A DNA stretch of 64,000 nucleotides, from the NCBI RefSeq assembly GCF_002795805.1, contig NZ_CP018799.1:2287001-2351000 (forward strand), written 5' to 3'. Numbering within the stretch: the first letter of the stretch is position 1; every line of letters starts with the position of its first letter. Positions 55,855 through 64,000 of this stretch are shown here, piece after piece. The notes under the pieces were generated by a model that was not told the DNA's origin, did no database searches, and saw only the letters and a program-made list of their open reading frames with translations. Both the position numbers and the translations under genes were made by a program. Source of the DNA: Mariprofundus aestuarium (GTDB lineage: Bacteria; Pseudomonadota; Zetaproteobacteria; Mariprofundales; Mariprofundaceae).

Positions 55855-55890
55855 AAAAAAGAATGGGCAATGATTGCTCATTGCCCATTC
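55855..55890 (-). terminator. Strong minus-strand terminator with no gene before it
   Basis: A perfect 13-bp stem GAATGGGCAATGA/TCATTGCCCATTC with TTGC loop, and A6 at its left, which is U6 on the minus strand. No minus-strand gene lies between here and the window end, only plus-strand transposon genes. It likely belongs to a host gene now pushed beyond the transposon. Confidence 0.75.
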
Positions 55891-55945
55891 TGTTATCTAA
55901 ATTGGAAGTGAGGTTGTATCACGCGACAACAGATGTCTGTGCCGC

Positions 55946-56033
55946 CACATTAATTGATGAGATTATAAAATCCATATAAATAAACAATCCTCTAAATATC
56001 TCATTATTTCACACTAATAAATAATGAGATATT
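55946..56033. repeat. Candidate TnsB-binding repeats in the transposon end
   Basis: A CAC-ATTAATTGATGAGATTAT-like sequence (55,946-55,967) recurs as CACTAATAAATAATGAGATATT (56,012-56,033). An inverted copy lies at 55,995-56,009, giving a perfect 15-bp inverted repeat (AATATCTCATTATTT and complement) with a 9-nt spacer. Multiple such sites are expected in Tn7-type ends. They also overlap the tnsA promoter region, so TnsB could autoregulate. Confidence 0.5.
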
Positions 56034-56080
56034 GTTCTGATTTGTTGCATAATCTAGGATTATTTGCTATTAATAATTCC

Positions 56081-56722
56081 ATGGGAAACCCTGTTAGAAA
56101 GATCCCCCATCGAACTCGCGGCGTTCGAGGCTACTTTTTCAGTTTGAAAAATAATCGTAGAGTAGATTATGAGTCGCTGAATGAGCAGAGCTTGATGAAA
56201 GTATTGGAGACAGACCCTTATATTCTTTCGTACTGTGAGCAACCACTAAAAATAGAATTTAAATGGGGAGGCCGCCCATACTCATATACTCCAGATATTC
56301 TATCTACAAACGTATCCTCACAATCCACCCTTTATGAAGTGAAGCCCGAAGAAGTGTTAAAGAAGGATGATGGCAGGCTTGCTGTAAAGTTTGATGCTGC
56401 AAAAGAGTATTGCTTGGAGCGAGGGTGGACATTTAAGATCGTGACGGAAGCCGTGCGTAAAAGCCCTGAGTACCAGCGGGCGGATTTATTATGGCCGCAC
56501 TTAATGAATCCAAACATTGATGAAAACCATGCAGAGACGATTTTTCGAAGGGTAAGTGATGCTGGCGTGCTAAGGCTTGCCGACCTTGTTGAAAAAGATG
56601 GCTGGGCTGACCCCAGTTATTGCGCGTTGCTTCATCTGATTGGTAAAGGTTGGTTGGTTGAAAGCTCTTCCGGCATTTTTGAGCCAAGTACGCATATTAG
56701 GGTGTTCACAGATCATGGCTAA
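56081..56722 (+). CDS. tnsA: TnsA-like transposon endonuclease
   Basis: 213 residues, cutting the 5' ends of the transposon during cut-and-paste movement. The nuclease centre reads YSYTPDILS then TLYEVKPEEVL, matching the D...ExK active site, with an upstream Glu in SLNEQSLMKVLE. The start chosen is the ATG of MGNPVRKIPHRTRG, as TniQ-type TnsA proteins often begin with PxRKIP; an ATG at 56,024 falls within the inverted repeat. A winged-helix-like C-terminus (RVSDAGVLRLADLVEKDG) would contact TnsC. It overlaps tnsB by 8 bp. Confidence 0.9.
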   Translation: MGNPVRKIPHRTRGVRGYFFSLKNNRRVDYESLNEQSLMKVLETDPYILSYCEQPLKIEFKWGGRPYSYTPDILSTNVSSQSTLYEVKPEEVLKKDDGRLAVKFDAAKEYCLERGWTFKIVTEAVRKSPEYQRADLLWPHLMNPNIDENHAETIFRRVSDAGVLRLADLVEKDGWADPSYCALLHLIGKGWLVESSSGIFEPSTHIRVFTDHG

Positions 56723-58565
56723 TAAAAAACCAACCTGGTTAAAAATGGGAATGAGCCTTTGGGTTCATGGAACAAAATTTAAAGTAATTGATTGTAGCAA
56801 TCCTAAAAATACTATTTTAGAGACGGAGCTAGGTAGTCGTTCGGCCCATAATGTTGTAGCACTGTTTTCATCCGGACATGTTAAATTAACAGATGCCAAG
56901 CAGAACGACACATTGCGCATTGCTGAATTATCAGTTTCAAGTGATGAGCTGGAACGGGCGAATGCTATTGCCAAAGATTTTGATAATTTACCCCATGAGT
57001 ATGGCAAACTTGGCCTCGCCATGGCTGATTTAGAGGCAAAGTATAAAGTGAACCGCTCTACACTAGCTCGCTGGAAGAGAGATTATCTGGCTGAAGGCGT
57101 GCCTGGCTTGTTTCGGCAATTTGAAAAAAAAGGTGGCCCAGGAAAAAAACGTTTAGACCCAACAACTGAAGCAATGATTCAGGCTGATATTAAAGAGCTT
57201 TATCTTGTCCGAACACCTAAAAGCATAGATGAAACAATTCGCCTTATTCGTAGCCATTTTGCCGCAGAAAACATTCGCCCTCCAAGCGTTGGAACTATCC
57301 GCAATCGAATAAGAGCTCTGTCGGAGAATGAGGTGCTAAAAGCGCAAAAGGGAAGTACTGTTGCTAGAGATCAATTACATGTTTCTCAGGATGAACACAG
57401 GGCATCTCGGCCACTGCAAGAAGTGCAAATTGATCACACCCCCATTGATCTTCAACTTTTATCAAGTGAGCTACGGCAACTAATTGGTAAGGCCCATATT
57501 ACGCTTATTCAAGATGTGTATAGCAGAGTTATTCTTGGGTTATATATTGGGTTAGAGCATCCATCGTTCCTTAGCGTCGCTAATGCGTTACGTGAGGCTA
57601 TCTTTACAAAAGAGAGTGTACTTGCGCAGTTTGAATTAAGTGATGATGCATGGCCGACATATGGTTTGATGGAAATGCTGCACAGTGATAATGCTGTTGA
57701 ATTTGATGGGCGACAAATGGATCACTTCTGTGCAGTGAATCGTGTAGAAAAACAATTCCGCCCAATTGGTCATAAAGAGTATGGCGGACATATAGAGAGT
57801 AGCATTAAAGCTGTTGTTAAGCACATACACTCACTACCCGGAACTACATTTTCTAATATTCGTGAGCGTGGGGATTATGATTCAGAAGGTAATGCTCAGA
57901 TCGATCTACAAGAGTTAAGAAGAATAATTTATCGCTGGGTAGTGAATAATTATAATCGCAAAGAGCGCGATGAATTGGGAGGTTTATCTCCATTACAAAT
58001 GTGGCAAAAGGCGTTGGATGAAGGCTGGCACCCAAGGATGCCAACCAGCTATGATGATTTTCGTTTCTCTCTTCTTCCTTATGAGGAAAGGCGGATTACC
58101 CGTCATGGCATTAGCCTTCTTGGTTTCAAATATAGTGCCCCATGCTTAAGGCATTGGAGGGCCAGGGAAAAGCCTCGCGAGAGAAAAAAATACCGTATTT
58201 ACTATGATCCGCTTGATATGCGTCGAGCAGACTTTGTCCATCCCGATGGTAGTGGCGTTAGTAAAATTGCATTGATAAGCCTATCCAGTGAGGGCCCGAT
58301 TTCCCTCGTAGAATTAAAATCGGCTAAAATAAGATCCTCACGTTACCCTGAGGCGACACCAGATTTGCACCTCGCTCATCAAGAGGAAAAAACCATACTT
58401 CAAGAGGCAGCCAAGAAAAATAAAAAAGCGCGTAAAATACTTGAGCAAAGAGCTGATTCAAAATCGCGTGCTCAGGCTGATGGTTCTCATAAAGGAAATG
58501 GATTTGGTTCTGGAATTGATTATTCACGATTGCCTGACTGGGCAAACACAGTTGATGAATCATGA
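56715..58565 (+). CDS. tnsB: TnsB-like DDE transposase
   Basis: 616 residues. N-terminal HTH domains (MADLEAKYKVNRSTLARWKRDYLAEG) bind the transposon ends. The DDE core has Asp in VQIDHTPIDLQLL, Asp in MLHSDNAVEFDG, and Glu in YGGHIESSIKAV. C-terminal Mu-type beta-barrel (LLGFKYSAPCL) and a basic tail (AAKKNKKARKILEQ) follow. It joins 3' ends to target DNA. Start codon overlaps the tnsA stop. Confidence 0.93.
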   Translation: MANKKPTWLKMGMSLWVHGTKFKVIDCSNPKNTILETELGSRSAHNVVALFSSGHVKLTDAKQNDTLRIAELSVSSDELERANAIAKDFDNLPHEYGKLGLAMADLEAKYKVNRSTLARWKRDYLAEGVPGLFRQFEKKGGPGKKRLDPTTEAMIQADIKELYLVRTPKSIDETIRLIRSHFAAENIRPPSVGTIRNRIRALSENEVLKAQKGSTVARDQLHVSQDEHRASRPLQEVQIDHTPIDLQLLSSELRQLIGKAHITLIQDVYSRVILGLYIGLEHPSFLSVANALREAIFTKESVLAQFELSDDAWPTYGLMEMLHSDNAVEFDGRQMDHFCAVNRVEKQFRPIGHKEYGGHIESSIKAVVKHIHSLPGTTFSNIRERGDYDSEGNAQIDLQELRRIIYRWVVNNYNRKERDELGGLSPLQMWQKALDEGWHPRMPTSYDDFRFSLLPYEERRITRHGISLLGFKYSAPCLRHWRAREKPRERKKYRIYYDPLDMRRADFVHPDGSGVSKIALISLSSEGPISLVELKSAKIRSSRYPEATPDLHLAHQEEKTILQEAAKKNKKARKILEQRADSKSRAQADGSHKGNGFGSGIDYSRLPDWANTVDES

Positions 58566-59368
58566 TTGAACATGATGGTCTGCTGCGGATACAACAGGTT
58601 CAGGAAGAAAGGTGGCAGCCTCATCCATATGCAGTCAGAGTGCTGGAAGAGCTTGAGCTTGTGTACCTGCAACCGAAAATTTCTGGGGCACCTATAGGCC
58701 GTTCTATCATCGGATGTTCTGGTGCAGGCAAGACGACAATTCTCAAGCATTTTGTCGAAGAACACCGGCTACATGAGAGCTCATGTCCTCCTCTTTTTAT
58801 TAACACCCCTCCAGGACCAAATCTAAATTCTTTACTAACCATGATTCTTGAAGAGGTAAATGATTTCAAACCGACTGCAAGAACCGCATCAGAAAAGCTG
58901 AATCGAACACTTCGTATTTTGGGTGAAATCAAGCCACCGATGATTATTTTTGATGAAGCCCAAAATCTGGCAGAAGGTACGGATAAACAGTCACGGAATT
59001 GTGTTAATGCTATTAAAACGATTAGTAATAACTTGGGGATTCCAACCATTATGGCAGGAACCGGCGCTTTGATTCCGGTGATTAATTATGACGACCAGTA
59101 TGTGCGACGCTGGCGACCGGTTAAGTTGGAAGTTTATCCAGAATGTCAGGAATTTGTTGATTTGGTTAATGCTCTGGTCGCTAATATTCCTCTGAAGAAA
59201 CAGGAAGGCTTTCTTGCCCCTACTGCCTATCAAAAACTCCATAAATACAGTCAAGGTGTAATTGGACTGCTTAAAGAGGTGTTGATCAATGCTACGGCTG
59301 AAGCAATACGAGATGGGTCTGAACGCCTGACTATTAAACACATTCGACCAATTATGGAAATTGATTGA
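58562..59368 (+). CDS. tnsC: TnsC/TniB-like AAA+ transposition regulator
   Basis: 268 residues with IIGCSGAGKTTILKHF (Walker A, ~residue 50), MIIFDEAQNLAEG (Walker B, ~residue 130) and MAGTGALIPVI sensor region. Known members form filaments on DNA and link target selection to the transposase. It is short compared with Tn7 TnsC (555), closer to TniB of Tn5053-type elements. Its ATG overlaps the tnsB stop. Confidence 0.92.
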   Translation: MIEHDGLLRIQQVQEERWQPHPYAVRVLEELELVYLQPKISGAPIGRSIIGCSGAGKTTILKHFVEEHRLHESSCPPLFINTPPGPNLNSLLTMILEEVNDFKPTARTASEKLNRTLRILGEIKPPMIIFDEAQNLAEGTDKQSRNCVNAIKTISNNLGIPTIMAGTGALIPVINYDDQYVRRWRPVKLEVYPECQEFVDLVNALVANIPLKKQEGFLAPTAYQKLHKYSQGVIGLLKEVLINATAEAIRDGSERLTIKHIRPIMEID

Positions 59369-59377
59369 TGTAACCTC

Positions 59378-60412
59378 ATGACTTTGGCTGTTCATCTTGC
59401 ACCGTTACCAGACGAACTGTTGAGCTCTTGGGTGCATCGCACATGTCATGCCAATGCCACTTCACTGTACTCTTTGCTGTGGCATCATGGTTTAAAGTGC
59501 CATGCACAAGTCGACTTGGATCAATGTAAAAACAGAAAACTTTTACTTTGGCTGGCCAGAGAATTAAAGCATCCAGAAGGGGTTCGTGGGGTTCGTGATA
59601 TGAGTCTCCTACCCGTTTTAGAAATAGAAAAAGGATTTCCGCACCGGAGTTGGATTCGTGGTATCGACAGGCGGGCTTTTAAATGGAGAGCTTTTCGATA
59701 CTGCCCTGTATGTTTATCGGAAGATGAACGCCCCTATTTTCGCCAGCATTGGCGATTGGATTGGTACGAAGTTTGCCACCATCATCAAATGCAAATGTTC
59801 AATGCGTGTCCTTTTTGTGGACATCCGCTGATTTTGCACCGTGTGCGATGGCACAGACCACATCTTGCTCATTGCTACTCATGTTATGCTGATTTGAGAA
59901 ACACACCGAACATGGCCGCCATACTTGATCTAAGCTCGATGAAAGCTATAGAGGGTCTAATTCTGATAATTAATCATCACGATAAAAAAACGTATGCGGC
60001 GGTTCATTTTGTTGAAGCATTTCTTGACCAGTGGATTCGCCTAGAAGGTATAGATTCATTTGCGGCAGAAATGGATAAATTTGGATATACATTAAATGAT
60101 GACGCCTACAAACGGCTTCCTTTGCTCATGAGAGCAGTTACTGCGTATCGCTTATGGCATGAAAAACGAAAGTTGCTAAAGAGCTTGTCCACTGCAAATC
60201 AAAATTATTTTAATCTTGCCGTTCGAAGTTTCGGATGTCCCAAGCCAATGGAGCCTTTTTTTAAGGCACTACATCATCCCATTGAGATAAATAAAGGGAT
60301 TATACTGTGCGCCATCCAGGAGATTGAGGCGACTGGCAGAGAAGCAACCGTTAAAAGGATAAGCAAGAAGCTCGGCTGCTCTCCAGGTCGTATTGATGAT
60401 TGGCTTTCATGA
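59378..60412 (+). CDS. tniQ: TniQ-family target-selection protein
   Basis: 344 residues. The N-terminal TniQ domain has PLPDELLSSWVHRTCHAN; zinc-finger cysteines/histidines lie in YCPVCLSEDE, VCHHHQMQMFNACPFCGHPL and AHCYSCYADLR. The C-terminus has a helical region with an HTH (TVKRISKKLGCSPGRIDDW). TniQ/TnsD proteins read the target site. Its length is between TniQ (~400) and a short type; target not determinable. Confidence 0.9.
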   Translation: MTLAVHLAPLPDELLSSWVHRTCHANATSLYSLLWHHGLKCHAQVDLDQCKNRKLLLWLARELKHPEGVRGVRDMSLLPVLEIEKGFPHRSWIRGIDRRAFKWRAFRYCPVCLSEDERPYFRQHWRLDWYEVCHHHQMQMFNACPFCGHPLILHRVRWHRPHLAHCYSCYADLRNTPNMAAILDLSSMKAIEGLILIINHHDKKTYAAVHFVEAFLDQWIRLEGIDSFAAEMDKFGYTLNDDAYKRLPLLMRAVTAYRLWHEKRKLLKSLSTANQNYFNLAVRSFGCPKPMEPFFKALHHPIEINKGIILCAIQEIEATGREATVKRISKKLGCSPGRIDDWLS

Positions 60413-60498
60413 ATACTGAAAAGGTAATGTGCGAAATACACCCCAGAATAATTTCAAAATGGTTTTGCCATGCTTATTAATTGTTTGATGGTTCAGAT

Positions 60499-60504
60499 TA
60501 TAAT
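60499..60504 (+). promoter_or_regulatory. Possible -10 of the GTPase-system operon
   Basis: A perfect TATAAT lies ~40 bp before the first GTPase-system gene in the 130-bp gap after tniQ. No convincing -35 is spaced correctly. It suggests a separate promoter for the cargo operon. Confidence 0.35.
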
Positions 60505-60542
60505 ATATAGTTTATCTTTAGCAGAACAACATGGGGTATATT

Positions 60543-61805
60543 ATGGCTTATCCAATTCTTCAAGCATTTCTCGATAATCAATTCATCAAAACTGATGACC
60601 CTGAGCATATTGGATACTTAAAGAAGTCCTCGACAGCAGTTCTACGACAGTTGCAGCAAAAAAAGAATAGGCCCAAGGTAATTACCTACACATTAGCTGC
60701 TCTCGACCCCACCATTTCTGACGATGAACCTATCGTTGGTGATGTCGAAACTTTGATCATAAAAAATTGGCCTGCTTTTAGAAATAGTGTGGTTAAAACT
60801 AAAGATACCCCCATTGCCTATGTCCGAGCAGTTATCCTCGAAGCATTAAGTAAACTTAGCCATGATGAAGAGATGGCAGCCATTATTTGGCATACAGGCA
60901 GAAATATAATCAGCTATTACAAATTGGCGGGACAGAAAGAGGTGTTGGTCAGTTTTTTGCTGGATATTGGAAATAGAGTAGAAGAAACCGCCCGTAGTAA
61001 TTGGGGTGCCCATGAGAGTATTCAATCCGTGGATATCAAATCAACTCTTCCGACAGTAAAATCTGTAACTGTGAACAAAGACTCATTAGAAAAGCACTTA
61101 ATGGCAGCATCTGCTCAAGCAAGTGTTGGTGGAGAAAATCCACAGTGGGCAAGCAATAATGCAGCTATCTGGCCCACTTTTTTCTCGGAGAGAGCTGCAG
61201 AGGGTATTTCTAAAGGGATAAATGCAGCCCTGTCCATACAAAACGAATCAATTGCATCAATTTCTAGCTCTATTCAAACTACTCTTGAAGTAAACTTAGA
61301 ACAAATGTCCTCTTCCATATTGAAAAGTTCCCTTTCTCTTAATAAACGTAGTGATTTACTATGGTGGAAGCAGGCGCTCTACTCACAAAGGTTAGACTCT
61401 AGTTATCGTAGCTTAGCCCCGCTTTCTATGAGCACTGCAATGGCTATTGACTTGGCTGATAATGTTCCCCCAATTCATCCAAAAAGTGTTGATTTTTTCC
61501 TTAAAGAGACATTGCGAGATGTGCTCGGCGAAAAACTAGAACAAAAAGTTTCTTTAGCTGAGTTGTTGGGGAAACTGCAATCCTTTTCTGAAAGTGAAAA
61601 ATTGTTATTAGAAGGTTTCTGTGATGCAGGAGAAAGCCGAAAACCTTTTGGTGTTAGCTTGGCAAGTCTCCTAAAGGGGGCAACAAGCTCTGATGAATTT
61701 TTCAAATATACTGGCATAGATAAGAATGCAGAAATCTCTTTAGCCGATTTCACCGTGTGGCTATTTCATGATCTCGAAGCAAATGCTCTTGCTCAGGCAA
61801 AATAA
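60543..61805 (+). CDS. All-helical GTPase-associated system (GASH-like) protein
   Basis: 420 residues, nearly all helical. The C-terminal half (DLLWWKQALYSQRLDSSYRSLAP, MSTAMAIDLADNVPPIHPKSVDFFLKETL) matches my memory of the GTPase-associated system all-helical protein family. The N-terminal half carries YPILQAFLDN and a Ser/Thr-rich linker. GGGG precedes the ATG by six bases. Known only by comparative genomics; it is thought to be an adaptor or regulator with neighbouring GTPases. Confidence 0.72.
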   Translation: MAYPILQAFLDNQFIKTDDPEHIGYLKKSSTAVLRQLQQKKNRPKVITYTLAALDPTISDDEPIVGDVETLIIKNWPAFRNSVVKTKDTPIAYVRAVILEALSKLSHDEEMAAIIWHTGRNIISYYKLAGQKEVLVSFLLDIGNRVEETARSNWGAHESIQSVDIKSTLPTVKSVTVNKDSLEKHLMAASAQASVGGENPQWASNNAAIWPTFFSERAAEGISKGINAALSIQNESIASISSSIQTTLEVNLEQMSSSILKSSLSLNKRSDLLWWKQALYSQRLDSSYRSLAPLSMSTAMAIDLADNVPPIHPKSVDFFLKETLRDVLGEKLEQKVSLAELLGKLQSFSESEKLLLEGFCDAGESRKPFGVSLASLLKGATSSDEFFKYTGIDKNAEISLADFTVWLFHDLEANALAQAK

Positions 61806-61810
61806 AAAAG

Positions 61811-62791
61811 ATGAGACAAAAATGCAGTAAACCAAATTGCTCTGCTCCTAGAGGTATGTGTATTGAGCATGGTAACAATGATCACCCAATGTGTGAGCAT
61901 TGGAGTGGGCCTCAGTCGAATCAAGTAGTTGCTGAACAAAAGAAATCTAACAACAAAACACAGCAACTACCTTGGACAGGAGAGCCTTTTCAACCAGCTG
62001 ATATTGCGATTGTCAGCCAACGATCTACCCCTTTGATTATAGGTATGGTTGGGAGTCCTGATGCAGGAAAAACATCCTACCTTGGTATGCTTTATACCCT
62101 TCTTTTTAATGGCATCAAATTAGAGCGTTGGTCATTCGCTGGTAGCTGTACACTTGCTGCATGGGAAACGCTGGCCCAATGCTTGCAAATAAAACCTGGT
62201 GGCCTTGTTAAGTTTGCTCCTCCAACACCATCTAACCCTGACTATTACAGTCTATTCCATCTATCTCTAAAAAAAGGAAAGCTGTTCAGAGATGTGCTTT
62301 TTGCAGACTCTTCAGGAGAAGTGTTCAATCTCTGGTCTGAGAACACCCAAGATTCGAATGCAGGGAATGCTCGCTGGATCTATGAAAAATCTAGTGCTTT
62401 TGTTTTTATGGTCGATTGCGTGGCTTTAATAGAGAAAAGGGGGGCTGCAAAGAGTGAAATCATTCAAATGGCTGAACAACTAGCAGCTAACTTGAAGGGA
62501 CGCCCAGTAGCTGTGGTTTGGTCCAAAGCTGATAGAATCTATGAAGTCCGAGAGAATATTAAAAGTGCTCTAGATGAAGATTTAACTCTGATCTTTGGTA
62601 ACTCAAAAGTTTTCGAAGTTAGTAATTTCTCTAAGTCTGATCCCGACACCCTATGCCACAAAAACAACCTTGAAGTTACTGAATACTTGTTGGAGGAATT
62701 AAACAAGCCAAGGGCCATTAATTTGATACCGCAAATTGAAAGTTCAGGTGATTTGTTTTTTAACTATAGAGGTTCTTATGTCAGTGAATGA
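61811..62791 (+). CDS. P-loop GTPase with Cys-rich N-terminus
   Basis: 326 residues. The N-terminal 30 residues hold Cys/His pairs (KCSKPNCSAPRGMCIEHG, PMCEHW), possibly a zinc site. Then a TRAFAC-like GTPase core: GMVGSPDAGKTSYLG (G1), FADSSGEV (G3) and VWSKADRI (G4, S-K-x-D). Likely a GTP switch of the conflict system. Starts 5 bp after the GASH-like gene; ribosome-binding sequence weak. Confidence 0.78.
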   Translation: MRQKCSKPNCSAPRGMCIEHGNNDHPMCEHWSGPQSNQVVAEQKKSNNKTQQLPWTGEPFQPADIAIVSQRSTPLIIGMVGSPDAGKTSYLGMLYTLLFNGIKLERWSFAGSCTLAAWETLAQCLQIKPGGLVKFAPPTPSNPDYYSLFHLSLKKGKLFRDVLFADSSGEVFNLWSENTQDSNAGNARWIYEKSSAFVFMVDCVALIEKRGAAKSEIIQMAEQLAANLKGRPVAVVWSKADRIYEVRENIKSALDEDLTLIFGNSKVFEVSNFSKSDPDTLCHKNNLEVTEYLLEELNKPRAINLIPQIESSGDLFFNYRGSYVSE

Positions 62792-63608
62792 TTCAATACT
62801 AATCATTGGTCACCCAAGTTCTGGAAAAACCACTTTTATTGCTCAGTTTCTCACTAGGGTTAAGAAAAGGAAAAGCAGCATAAGCCTTATCAAAGCCCCT
62901 GAGAACATAAAAGCTGTTGCAGATGCGGTAAAAAAACTTTCTAACGGAGAAGCGCCAACAGCAACCCCAGCAGGTGAAAATGAAGAACTAGTTTTATCCA
63001 TCCAGGTCGGTGAGAAAAGCATCGACTTAGTTTGCCCTGATTATGGGGGTGAACAGGTCAGTGACATGACTGAATTGATGACCATTGATGATCATTGGAA
63101 AAAACTACTGAATAACAGTGACCGATGGGTATTATTCATTCGTGCTCATACCATTATGCCTAGGTATGACTTAAGTAGAAATAGTTATGAAAAAATAGAT
63201 AACGAAAAACATACATCCTTAAGAAGCCCCGGATTATCTGAACAAAGCAAGTTTATTGAATTGCTTCAATCAATGCTGCATATTAAAAATATAGGTCTGA
63301 AGCATCCAATTTCCATGCCTACAATATCAATTGTTCTTACATGTTGGGATGAGTTAGAAACAAATGAAACCCCTGCCCAGGTTTTGCAAGACAAACTACC
63401 CATGCTGCTCCATTTTGTTGAAACTGTATGGGAAAAGGATTCTTTTGAGATATTTGGGCTATCAGCACAAGAGTTTCCATTGAATACAATTGAAGCAAAA
63501 GACAAATATCTGGATGATCTACCTGAAAGCTTTGGTTACGTGGTAGATCAGAATGGAGCAAAGGATAAAGATATCACCAAACTTGTTGCGGCCACCCTTA
63601 ACCTCTAA
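62778..63608 (+). CDS. Second P-loop GTPase (double-GTPase type)
   Basis: 276 residues, start ATG of MSVNDSILII with AGAGG five bases upstream, overlapping the previous gene by 14 bp. G1 is ILIIGHPSSGKTTFIAQFL, G3 is VCPDYGGEQV, the G4 position reads LTCWDEL (NKxD replaced), and GLSAQE fits G5. Cytosolic. A pair of distinct GTPases in one operon is typical of the predicted double-GTPase conflict systems. Confidence 0.78.
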   Translation: MSVNDSILIIGHPSSGKTTFIAQFLTRVKKRKSSISLIKAPENIKAVADAVKKLSNGEAPTATPAGENEELVLSIQVGEKSIDLVCPDYGGEQVSDMTELMTIDDHWKKLLNNSDRWVLFIRAHTIMPRYDLSRNSYEKIDNEKHTSLRSPGLSEQSKFIELLQSMLHIKNIGLKHPISMPTISIVLTCWDELETNETPAQVLQDKLPMLLHFVETVWEKDSFEIFGLSAQEFPLNTIEAKDKYLDDLPESFGYVVDQNGAKDKDITKLVAATLNL

Positions 63609-64000
63609 TGATCATTCATCAGGCAATCTATGGGGATAAGTCAGGAGCTTATGCCCTACTTAAAACAAGCTTAACGGATACCGCCGCTGCAAAGCGAATA
63701 TGCAATGTTACCGATTTGTTAGATCGACCTTCAAATGGGCATTTAGCTCAACCTGTGTTTCGAGGGTTCAGTTTTGATAACCTTTATATTTTTGTTAAAT
63801 CATTTCCAGATAACGACCCCACTGTTAGGAACGGTCGAGTATTATCACATACATTAATTGTTAGCCAAGATGATCTACACCGACTAAATGATTTAGAAAA
63901 ACTGTTTTCTCATTTCATGCCCGAATTAGATAAAGCCTTTGAACCAATGCCCATAGAAATTGATGATGCCCCCCCCAATAGGATTAAAACTATTGATCAT
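63608..64000 (+). CDS. GTPase-associated protein 1 (GAP1)-like, N-terminal part
   Basis: 131 codons run off the window end. The start overlaps the previous stop (TAATG). The pattern IHQAIYGDKSGAYALL, RGFSFDNLYIFVKSFPDND and NGRVLSHTLIVSQDDL matches the N-terminal domain of GTPase-associated protein 1, as found next to GASH proteins and double GTPases. The full protein is probably several hundred residues longer. Confidence 0.7.
   Translation, partial: MIIHQAIYGDKSGAYALLKTSLTDTAAAKRICNVTDLLDRPSNGHLAQPVFRGFSFDNLYIFVKSFPDNDPTVRNGRVLSHTLIVSQDDLHRLNDLEKLFSHFMPELDKAFEPMPIEIDDAPPNRIKTIDH

What the first reader, a model, noticed from the sequence alone, without database searches (positions are those of the whole stretch)
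55891..64000. Tn7-like transposon carrying a multi-gene double-GTPase conflict system
Directly behind tniQ is an operon: GASH-like helical protein, Cys-rich-headed GTPase, second GTPase and a GAP1-like protein, with overlapping starts. Comparative genomics has predicted such GTPase-associated sets to be counter-invader systems, but to my knowledge their mechanism is not established. Its place as first cargo in a targeting transposon supports a defence role. An effector gene likely follows outside the window.
Basis: partly seen in the sequence, partly recalled or inferred. Interest (0 to 1): 0.86.

Follow-up and report, generated by a model that had tools for sequence, protein, structure and literature searches.

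The report
GTPase defence operon inside a transposon
A 26.8-kb jumping gene (a Tn7-like transposon) inserted beside a ribonucleotide-reductase gene carries a complete five-gene set with two paired GTPase switches and a nucleotide-cleaving enzyme that very probably kills or stalls the cell when a virus or other invader is sensed; the kind of set was predicted in 2020 but I found no experimental test of it, and here it is intact and easy to test.

Summary
Window 55938 to window-equivalent 82740 is a 26,803-bp Tn7-like transposon (tnsA, tnsB, tnsC/tniB, tniQ; matching end repeats; 5-bp duplication ATGTC) inserted just past the stop of a gene beside B12-dependent ribonucleotide reductase. A sister transposon sits at the same site in a relative, with different (phosphorothioation-type) defence cargo. 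Directly behind tniQ is a textbook GAP1-N1 double-GTPase system: GASH, zinc-ribbon DO-GTPase2, DO-GTPase1, GAP1. PNP and GAP1 each end in an EAD1 domain, the only two in the genome. In related loci the core order is conserved 77/77. PNP is either separate (30/30 with EAD1 on both partners) or fused to GAP1 (9/9 without EAD1). Four other Tn7-like lineages lie beside the same system. Best reading: GTPase-gated, GAP1-delivered nucleosidase for abortive-infection-type defence. The kind was described by Kaur et al. 2020; no experimental test was found in the library. New member of a known kind; the recurrent Tn7 link and the fusion/EAD1 rule are the new parts.

The parts
55933..55937 (.). left copy of 5-bp target-site duplication ATGTC
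   Evidence: read directly; identical ATGTC at L003:9741-9745 behind the right end, outside the window
55938..56035 (.). transposon left end (TGTGCCGCCAC...) with TnsB-site-like repeats (ATATCTCATTATT / AATAAATAATGAGATAT); the right end (...GGCACAGCACA) finishes outside the window at L003:9740 = contig 2369740
   Evidence: 17-bp exact match between the ends; homology to the sister element in G024 starts exactly at (C)TGTGCCG
56024..56722 (+). tnsA
   Evidence: Pfam Tn7_TnsA-like_N 3.1e-16; ORF coordinates
56715..58565 (+). tnsB (DDE transposase)
   Evidence: Mu-transpos_C 1e-6; NCBIfam IS481/IS3 transposase core
58562..59368 (+). tnsC/tniB ATPase
   Evidence: TniB 1.6e-35
59378..60412 (+). tniQ1 (target selector); a second TniQ lies at the right end outside the window (L003:8728-9579, minus strand)
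   Evidence: TniQ 1.8e-19; second TniQ 1.2e-11
60531..61805 (+). GASH (all-helical protein of the GTPase system)
   Evidence: PF19994 4.6e-58; confident AF2 model, pLDDT 90.5, no PDB fold match
61811..62791 (+). DO-GTPase2 with N-terminal zinc-ribbon-like Cys motif
   Evidence: PF19993 2.1e-51; P-loop, DxxGE and [TS]KxD motifs
62778..63608 (+). DO-GTPase1
   Evidence: PF19975 3.7e-72; P-loop, DYGGE and CWDE motifs
63608..64000 (+). GAP1, first 131 of 837 aa; continues to window-equivalent 66121 (L002:10608-13121): GAP1-N1 domain, alpha-solenoid, C-terminal EAD1. It is followed outside the window by the effector gene PNP-EAD1, 345 aa (L002:13118-14155, window-equivalent 66118-67155)
   Evidence: GAP1-N1 1.6e-19, EAD1 1.3e-5; PNP_UDP_1 1.7e-23, EAD1 4.7e-6; AF2 of GAP1 pLDDT 91.1; PNP catalytic residues conserved

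Best explanation
It is a complete GAP1-N1-type double-GTPase conflict system carried as the first cargo of an intact-looking Tn7-like transposon. Two GTPases (one with a zinc ribbon) form the switch. GAP1, a solenoid protein whose N-terminal domain co-evolves with the GTPases and whose middle is the fastest-evolving part, senses or relays an invader signal. Its C-terminal EAD1 holds the PNP effector through a like-with-like EAD1 contact. On triggering, the PNP enzyme is assembled or unlocked and cleaves the base from a purine nucleotide or nucleoside (ATP is the likeliest, by analogy with Detocs/CBASS PNP effectors), emptying the pool and stopping infection at the cost of the cell. Shown here: gene content, order, domains, catalytic residues, transposon ends, attachment site, effector swapping, fusion/EAD1 rule. 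Inferred: EAD1-EAD1 binding, trigger, substrate, defence outcome.
For: Pfam identities. Core order GASH-GTPase2-GTPase1-GAP1 in 77/77 loci that have all four. EAD1 occurs in this genome only on GAP1 and PNP, adjacent genes. Across loci PNP is separate with EAD1 on both partners (30/30) or fused to GAP1 without EAD1 (9/9; Fisher 4.7e-9, not corrected for relatedness). Catalytic E/E/D of the nucleosidase fold conserved in 31-32 of 32 (alignments). Effector slot swaps to caspase-EAD1 or metallophosphoesterase. GAP1-M/C most variable, 21-24% identity. Sister transposon at the same attachment site carries a cysteine desulfurase, DUF4007 and DndC-like PAPS-reductase set. One plasmid copy adjoins RADAR; a Leptospira phage carries the whole GASH-to-PNP set. 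Rare and foreign here: 1 of 78 genomes of the class, 3 of 398 of the phylum; element G+C 41.6% against 51-54% in flanks. Kaur et al. 2020 (PMC7159879) describe this architecture including PNPase effectors and EAD1 coupling; PNP effectors cleaving ATP: PMC11249213.
Against: No phenotype, enzyme assay or interaction is known for this or any GAP1-N1 system found in the library searched. GASH has no structural relative in the PDB, so its role is open. EAD1 matches are only slightly above the curated cut-off. The PNP domain is close to MTA/SAH nucleosidases, so ATP as substrate is unproven. The two nuclease-motif ORFs behind PNP could belong to the system or be a separate one.
Confidence: 0.78

Rival explanations
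1. Same system, but the PNP enzyme makes or removes a signal (for example releases a base or acts on a modified nucleotide) that alerts another effector, instead of killing the cell by depleting a pool.
For: Kaur et al. suggest PNPase domains may generate a second messenger. Two nuclease-motif genes lie directly behind PNP and could be the responders.
Against: Those two genes are not found at other GASH loci. PNP is interchangeable with caspase in the same slot, which fits a terminal effector better than a messenger synthase. Known PNP defence effectors deplete ATP.
Confidence: 0.15
2. The GTPase cassette is not defence but part of the transposon's own machinery (target choice, immunity to re-insertion, or control of transposition).
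For: Placed directly behind tniQ and on the same strand; also near Tn7-type genes in four other loci.
Against: 75 of 80 related loci show neither tnsC nor tniQ within the fetched flanks. The sister element at the same site has near-identical TnsC (96%) but no GTPase genes. Plasmid and phage copies exist.
Confidence: 0.04
3. A housekeeping or signalling operon (GTPase-controlled nucleoside salvage) picked up by a transposon.
For: PNP domain resembles MTA/SAH nucleosidase and futalosine hydrolase.
Against: Absent from nearly all relatives; the enzyme is replaced by a caspase-EAD1 protein in about half of the systems; EAD1 domains; mobile-element setting.
Confidence: 0.03

Closest known systems
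GAP1-N1 double-GTPase (DO-GTPase) conflict systems, Kaur, Burroughs, Iyer and Aravind 2020 eLife (PMC7159879)
   Same: GASH, two DO-GTPases (one with zinc ribbon), GAP1-N1 protein with C-terminal EAD1, PNPase effector with EAD1 in the same operon.
   Different: Carried by a Tn7-like transposon at a defined attachment site, a link the passages I read of that paper do not mention; the Tn7 cargo survey (PMC8649781) has no match for GTPase, effector-associated domain or caspase in its main text.
Detocs and CBASS PNP effectors (ATP nucleosidases; PMC11249213, PMC9966839)
   Same: PNP_UDP_1-type effector; PADLOC 'Effector PN-superfamily' model matches at 4.1e-18.
   Different: No sensor kinase/receiver partner and no cyclic-nucleotide synthase in the operon; control is by GTPases and GAP1 through EAD1.
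Tn7-like transposons with TnsABC-TniQ and a TnsE coded far from the tns operon (Tn6022-like arrangement, PMC10293859)
   Same: TnsA, TnsB, TnsC/TniB, TniQ in one operon; sister elements carry a TnsE-type gene at the opposite end.
   Different: Here a second TniQ stands where the sisters have TnsE; attachment site is the TSCPD gene beside B12-dependent ribonucleotide reductase; that paper's main text has no match for nrdJ or 'ribonucleo'.

Membership tests
GAP1-N1 double-GTPase system | two DO-GTPases, one with N-terminal zinc ribbon, with intact GTPase motifs | tested here: met
   PF19993 and PF19975; motifs in alignments
GAP1-N1 double-GTPase system | GAP1 protein with N1-type N-terminal domain coded downstream of the GTPases | tested here: met
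   PF20012 1.6e-19, gene overlaps GTPase1 stop
GAP1-N1 double-GTPase system | GASH protein in the operon | tested here: met
   PF19994 4.6e-58
GAP1-N1 double-GTPase system | effector coupled to GAP1 by fusion, EAD1 pair or GAAD | tested here: met
   EAD1 on GAP1 and PNP, above curated cut-off on both; only two EAD1 in the genome
GAP1-N1 double-GTPase system | protects against invaders | not testable with these tools
   no phenotype data found
Tn7-like transposon | TnsA, TnsB, TnsC and TniQ genes | tested here: met
Tn7-like transposon | TGT...ACA ends with repeated TnsB-type sites and 5-bp target duplication | tested here: met
   ends confirmed by the sister element
Tn7-like transposon | insertion just past the 3' end of a conserved gene (attachment site) | tested here: met
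   right end lies a few bases past the stop of the TSCPD gene; same site used by G024 and G021 elements; gene followed by a terminator without insertion in most relatives
Tn7-like transposon | able to transpose | not testable with these tools
   genes intact; no assay
Detocs-type system | PNP effector plus two-component sensor kinase/receiver pair in the operon | tested here: not met
   PNP present but no kinase/receiver in the operon; GTPase genes instead
PNP ATP-nucleosidase effectors | cleaves ATP to adenine and ribose-5'-triphosphate | not testable with these tools
   only fold-level catalytic residues checked

The most novel reading that the evidence does not exclude
GAP1-N1 GTPase systems are a recurrent specialised cargo of Tn7-like transposons, captured independently by at least five transposon lineages, and act for the transposon: a GTPase-gated nucleosidase that removes cells taken over by competing phages or plasmids, so that the transposon's attachment site becomes an exchange point for defence sets.
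Probability: 0.3. Interest if true: 0.65.

Novelty: new member of a known kind. Interest (0 to 1): 0.52.

Why it matters
GAP1-N1 systems were predicted in 2020 and I found no published test. This copy is compact, intact and bounded, and has an effector with an obvious enzyme assay, so the prediction (GTPase switch, EAD1 docking, nucleotide-cleaving effector) can be tested directly. The finding that EAD1 appears only when PNP and GAP1 are separate polypeptides, and is gone when they are fused, is direct comparative evidence for EAD1 as a docking module. The recurrent presence beside unrelated Tn7-like transposition genes adds a mobility route for these systems.

Tried and rejected
The first alignment for the genome scan was too diverged; a GTPase2 alignment worked. 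PADLOC and NCBIfam have no model for the GTPase core. Foldseek of the GASH and GAP1 models found no significant relative; the weak importin/HEAT matches to GAP1 (E 3e-3 at best, TM-score 0.15) are read only as 'alpha-solenoid'. No sigma-70-like promoter was found between tniQ and GASH. The two ORFs behind PNP were considered as part of the system and set aside: no homologues at other GASH loci. The TniB background list is dominated by weak ATPase matches, so only strong ones were counted. The careful tree did not finish; the quick tree was used.

Full report
WHAT IS THERE. The window is part of a single 2.54-Mb contig, so the stretch beyond 64,000 could be read. The next gene after GAP1, outside the window, is a 345-aa PNP_UDP_1 protein. 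GAP1 and PNP both end in EAD1 domains. The genes overlap by 14, 1 and 4 nt (GTPase2/GTPase1, GTPase1/GAP1, GAP1/PNP), as expected of a translationally coupled operon.

THE TRANSPOSON. The left end begins at 55938 with TGTGCCGCCAC; the right end finishes at window-equivalent 82740 (L003:9740) with GGCACAGCACA; both are flanked by ATGTC, a 5-bp target duplication. The ends share a 17-bp exact repeat and further inverted copies (AATAAATAATGAGATAT; E 7e-6 between the two end regions). The sister element in G024 aligns to the left end exactly from (C)TGTGCCG and to the right end exactly to CAGCACA, an independent check; its own flanks no longer match as a duplication (CCTAC and GTAAG). The element is 26,803 bp and has G+C 41.6% against 51-54% in the flanks.

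THE SITE. The insertion lies a few bases past the stop codon of a TSCPD-domain gene next to B12-dependent ribonucleotide reductase. In most relatives this gene is followed within about 40-60 bp by a hairpin terminator; in this genome the matching hairpin sits on the far side of the element (window 55860-55891), so the element has separated the gene from its terminator. Two relatives carry the same kind of right end at the same place: G024 (TnsA 82%, TnsB 89%, TnsC 96%, TniQ 65% identical) and G021. Cargo differs: G024 has a cysteine desulfurase, DUF4007, DUF6079-like and PAPS-reductase genes (a phosphorothioation-type defence set), a helicase and a GHKL ATPase; G021 has class I ribonucleotide reductase next to its TnsE. 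Both have a TnsE-type gene at the right end where this element has a second TniQ. A TnsE coded far from the tns operon was noted for Tn6022-like elements (PMC10293859). So one transposon family exchanges cargo, including defence cargo, at one site.

THE SYSTEM ELSEWHERE. A scan of 84,980 species genomes with a GTPase2 alignment gave 80 loci; nine plasmid loci and two loci from the phylum search were added. All 77 of the 80 genome loci with all four core genes have them in the same order and strand. Effectors vary: PNP-EAD1, caspase-EAD1, metallophosphoesterase (and annotations). PNP is either a separate EAD1 protein beside a GAP1 with EAD1 (30/30) or fused to GAP1 with no EAD1 (9/9) (Fisher 4.7e-9, not corrected for relatedness; the tree needs at least two changes for the fused state). 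In this genome EAD1 occurs only twice, on GAP1 and PNP. This pattern is what a docking domain that replaces a covalent link would give. A Leptospira phage carries GASH, GTPase2, GTPase1, GAP1-EAD1 and a phosphorylase in the same order beside an integrase; a plasmid copy adjoins RADAR.

TN7 LINK. Besides this element, tnsC plus tniQ genes lie within 10 kb of the system in Gluconacetobacter aggeris (L092), Photobacterium galatheae (L114), Hymenobacter sp. BRD67 (L119, tnsB broken) and Allopusillimonas ginsengisoli (L125, tnsAB fused and, as here, upstream of the system). Where they align, the Tns proteins are only about 23-39% identical to each other, and the five GTPase systems fall in separate parts of the tree, so capture happened several times. 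As a rough background, strong TniB matches (E up to 5e-18) number about 21 in 249 genomes of the phylum, about 0.9 Gb by my estimate from the listed sizes; 1.48 Mb of loci would then hold about 0.03 by chance against 3-4 seen. The genomes compared are not a matched sample and defence genes cluster with mobile elements, so this is an order of magnitude only. For the four other loci transposon ends were not mapped. The Tn7 cargo survey (PMC8649781) has no match for GTPase, effector-associated domain or caspase in its main text.

HOW IT PROBABLY WORKS. Both GTPases keep P-loop and G3 motifs, so they can switch. GAP1 models with high confidence (pLDDT 91) as an N-terminal alpha/beta part, a long alpha-solenoid and a terminal helical EAD1. 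Its middle and C-terminal parts are the most variable of all components (21-24% mean identity against 36-39% for GAP1-N and the GTPases), which suggests the solenoid meets a changing partner. GASH is a confident all-helical model (pLDDT 90.5) with a helix of about 70 residues and no PDB relative. PNP-type effectors in Detocs cleave ATP (PMC11249213). I therefore infer invader sensing by GAP1/GASH, GTP-dependent switching, and release or assembly of an EAD1-held nucleosidase that drains purine nucleotides. The last steps are inference.

VERDICT. The system is a full member of the GAP1-N1 class of Kaur et al. 2020. What is added: exact transposon, attachment site, sister elements, the effector, the fusion/EAD1 rule and the recurrent Tn7 link. 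No experimental test was found in the open-access library searched, which lacks most subscription journals. The organism was not identified by name.

Noticed in passing
L002:14196-14717 and L002:14738-15619 (window-equivalent 67196-68619): Two ORFs directly behind PNP show PD-(x)n-ExK-like nuclease motifs (KPDLLV...AIIEVK; RPDF...FAVESKG); the first matches PADLOC PD-Lambda-3_A at 8.7e-6. Not found at other GASH loci; perhaps a separate defence module.
   Followed up: partly
L043:2-3867 (G021 contig 119): In G021 class I ribonucleotide reductase genes (large and small subunit) lie just inside a TnsE-bearing transposon end that is inserted beside the class II (B12) ribonucleotide reductase operon.
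   Followed up: partly
L041/L042 (G024 contig 1): Sister Tn7-like element at the same attachment site with phosphorothioation-type defence genes and a TnsE at the far end; its flanks no longer show a matching target duplication.
   Followed up: partly
L003:8728-9579: A second, diverged TniQ (25% identical to the sister's first TniQ over 146 aa) stands alone at the right end where sister elements have TnsE: a possible exchange of target selectors.
   Followed up: partly
L003:2054-5092: The transposon also carries a MobA/MobL relaxase and a large serine recombinase, perhaps a mobilisable element nested inside it.
   Followed up: no
L137 (KF114878.1, Leptospira phage LkmZ_Bejolso9): A Leptospira phage genome carries a complete GASH-GTPase-GAP1-phosphorylase set next to an integrase, annotated mostly as hypothetical proteins.
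   Followed up: partly
L056 (NC_011311.1, Aliivibrio salmonicida plasmid pVSAL840): A diverged GTPase set with a metallophosphoesterase effector lies directly beside a RADAR defence system; its GASH gene appears cut by an IS30 insertion.
   Followed up: no
G008:C1:144501-144584: A 28-residue copy of the end of the TSCPD attachment gene lies 1.4 kb downstream of the gene, as if left by an earlier element at the same site.
   Followed up: no
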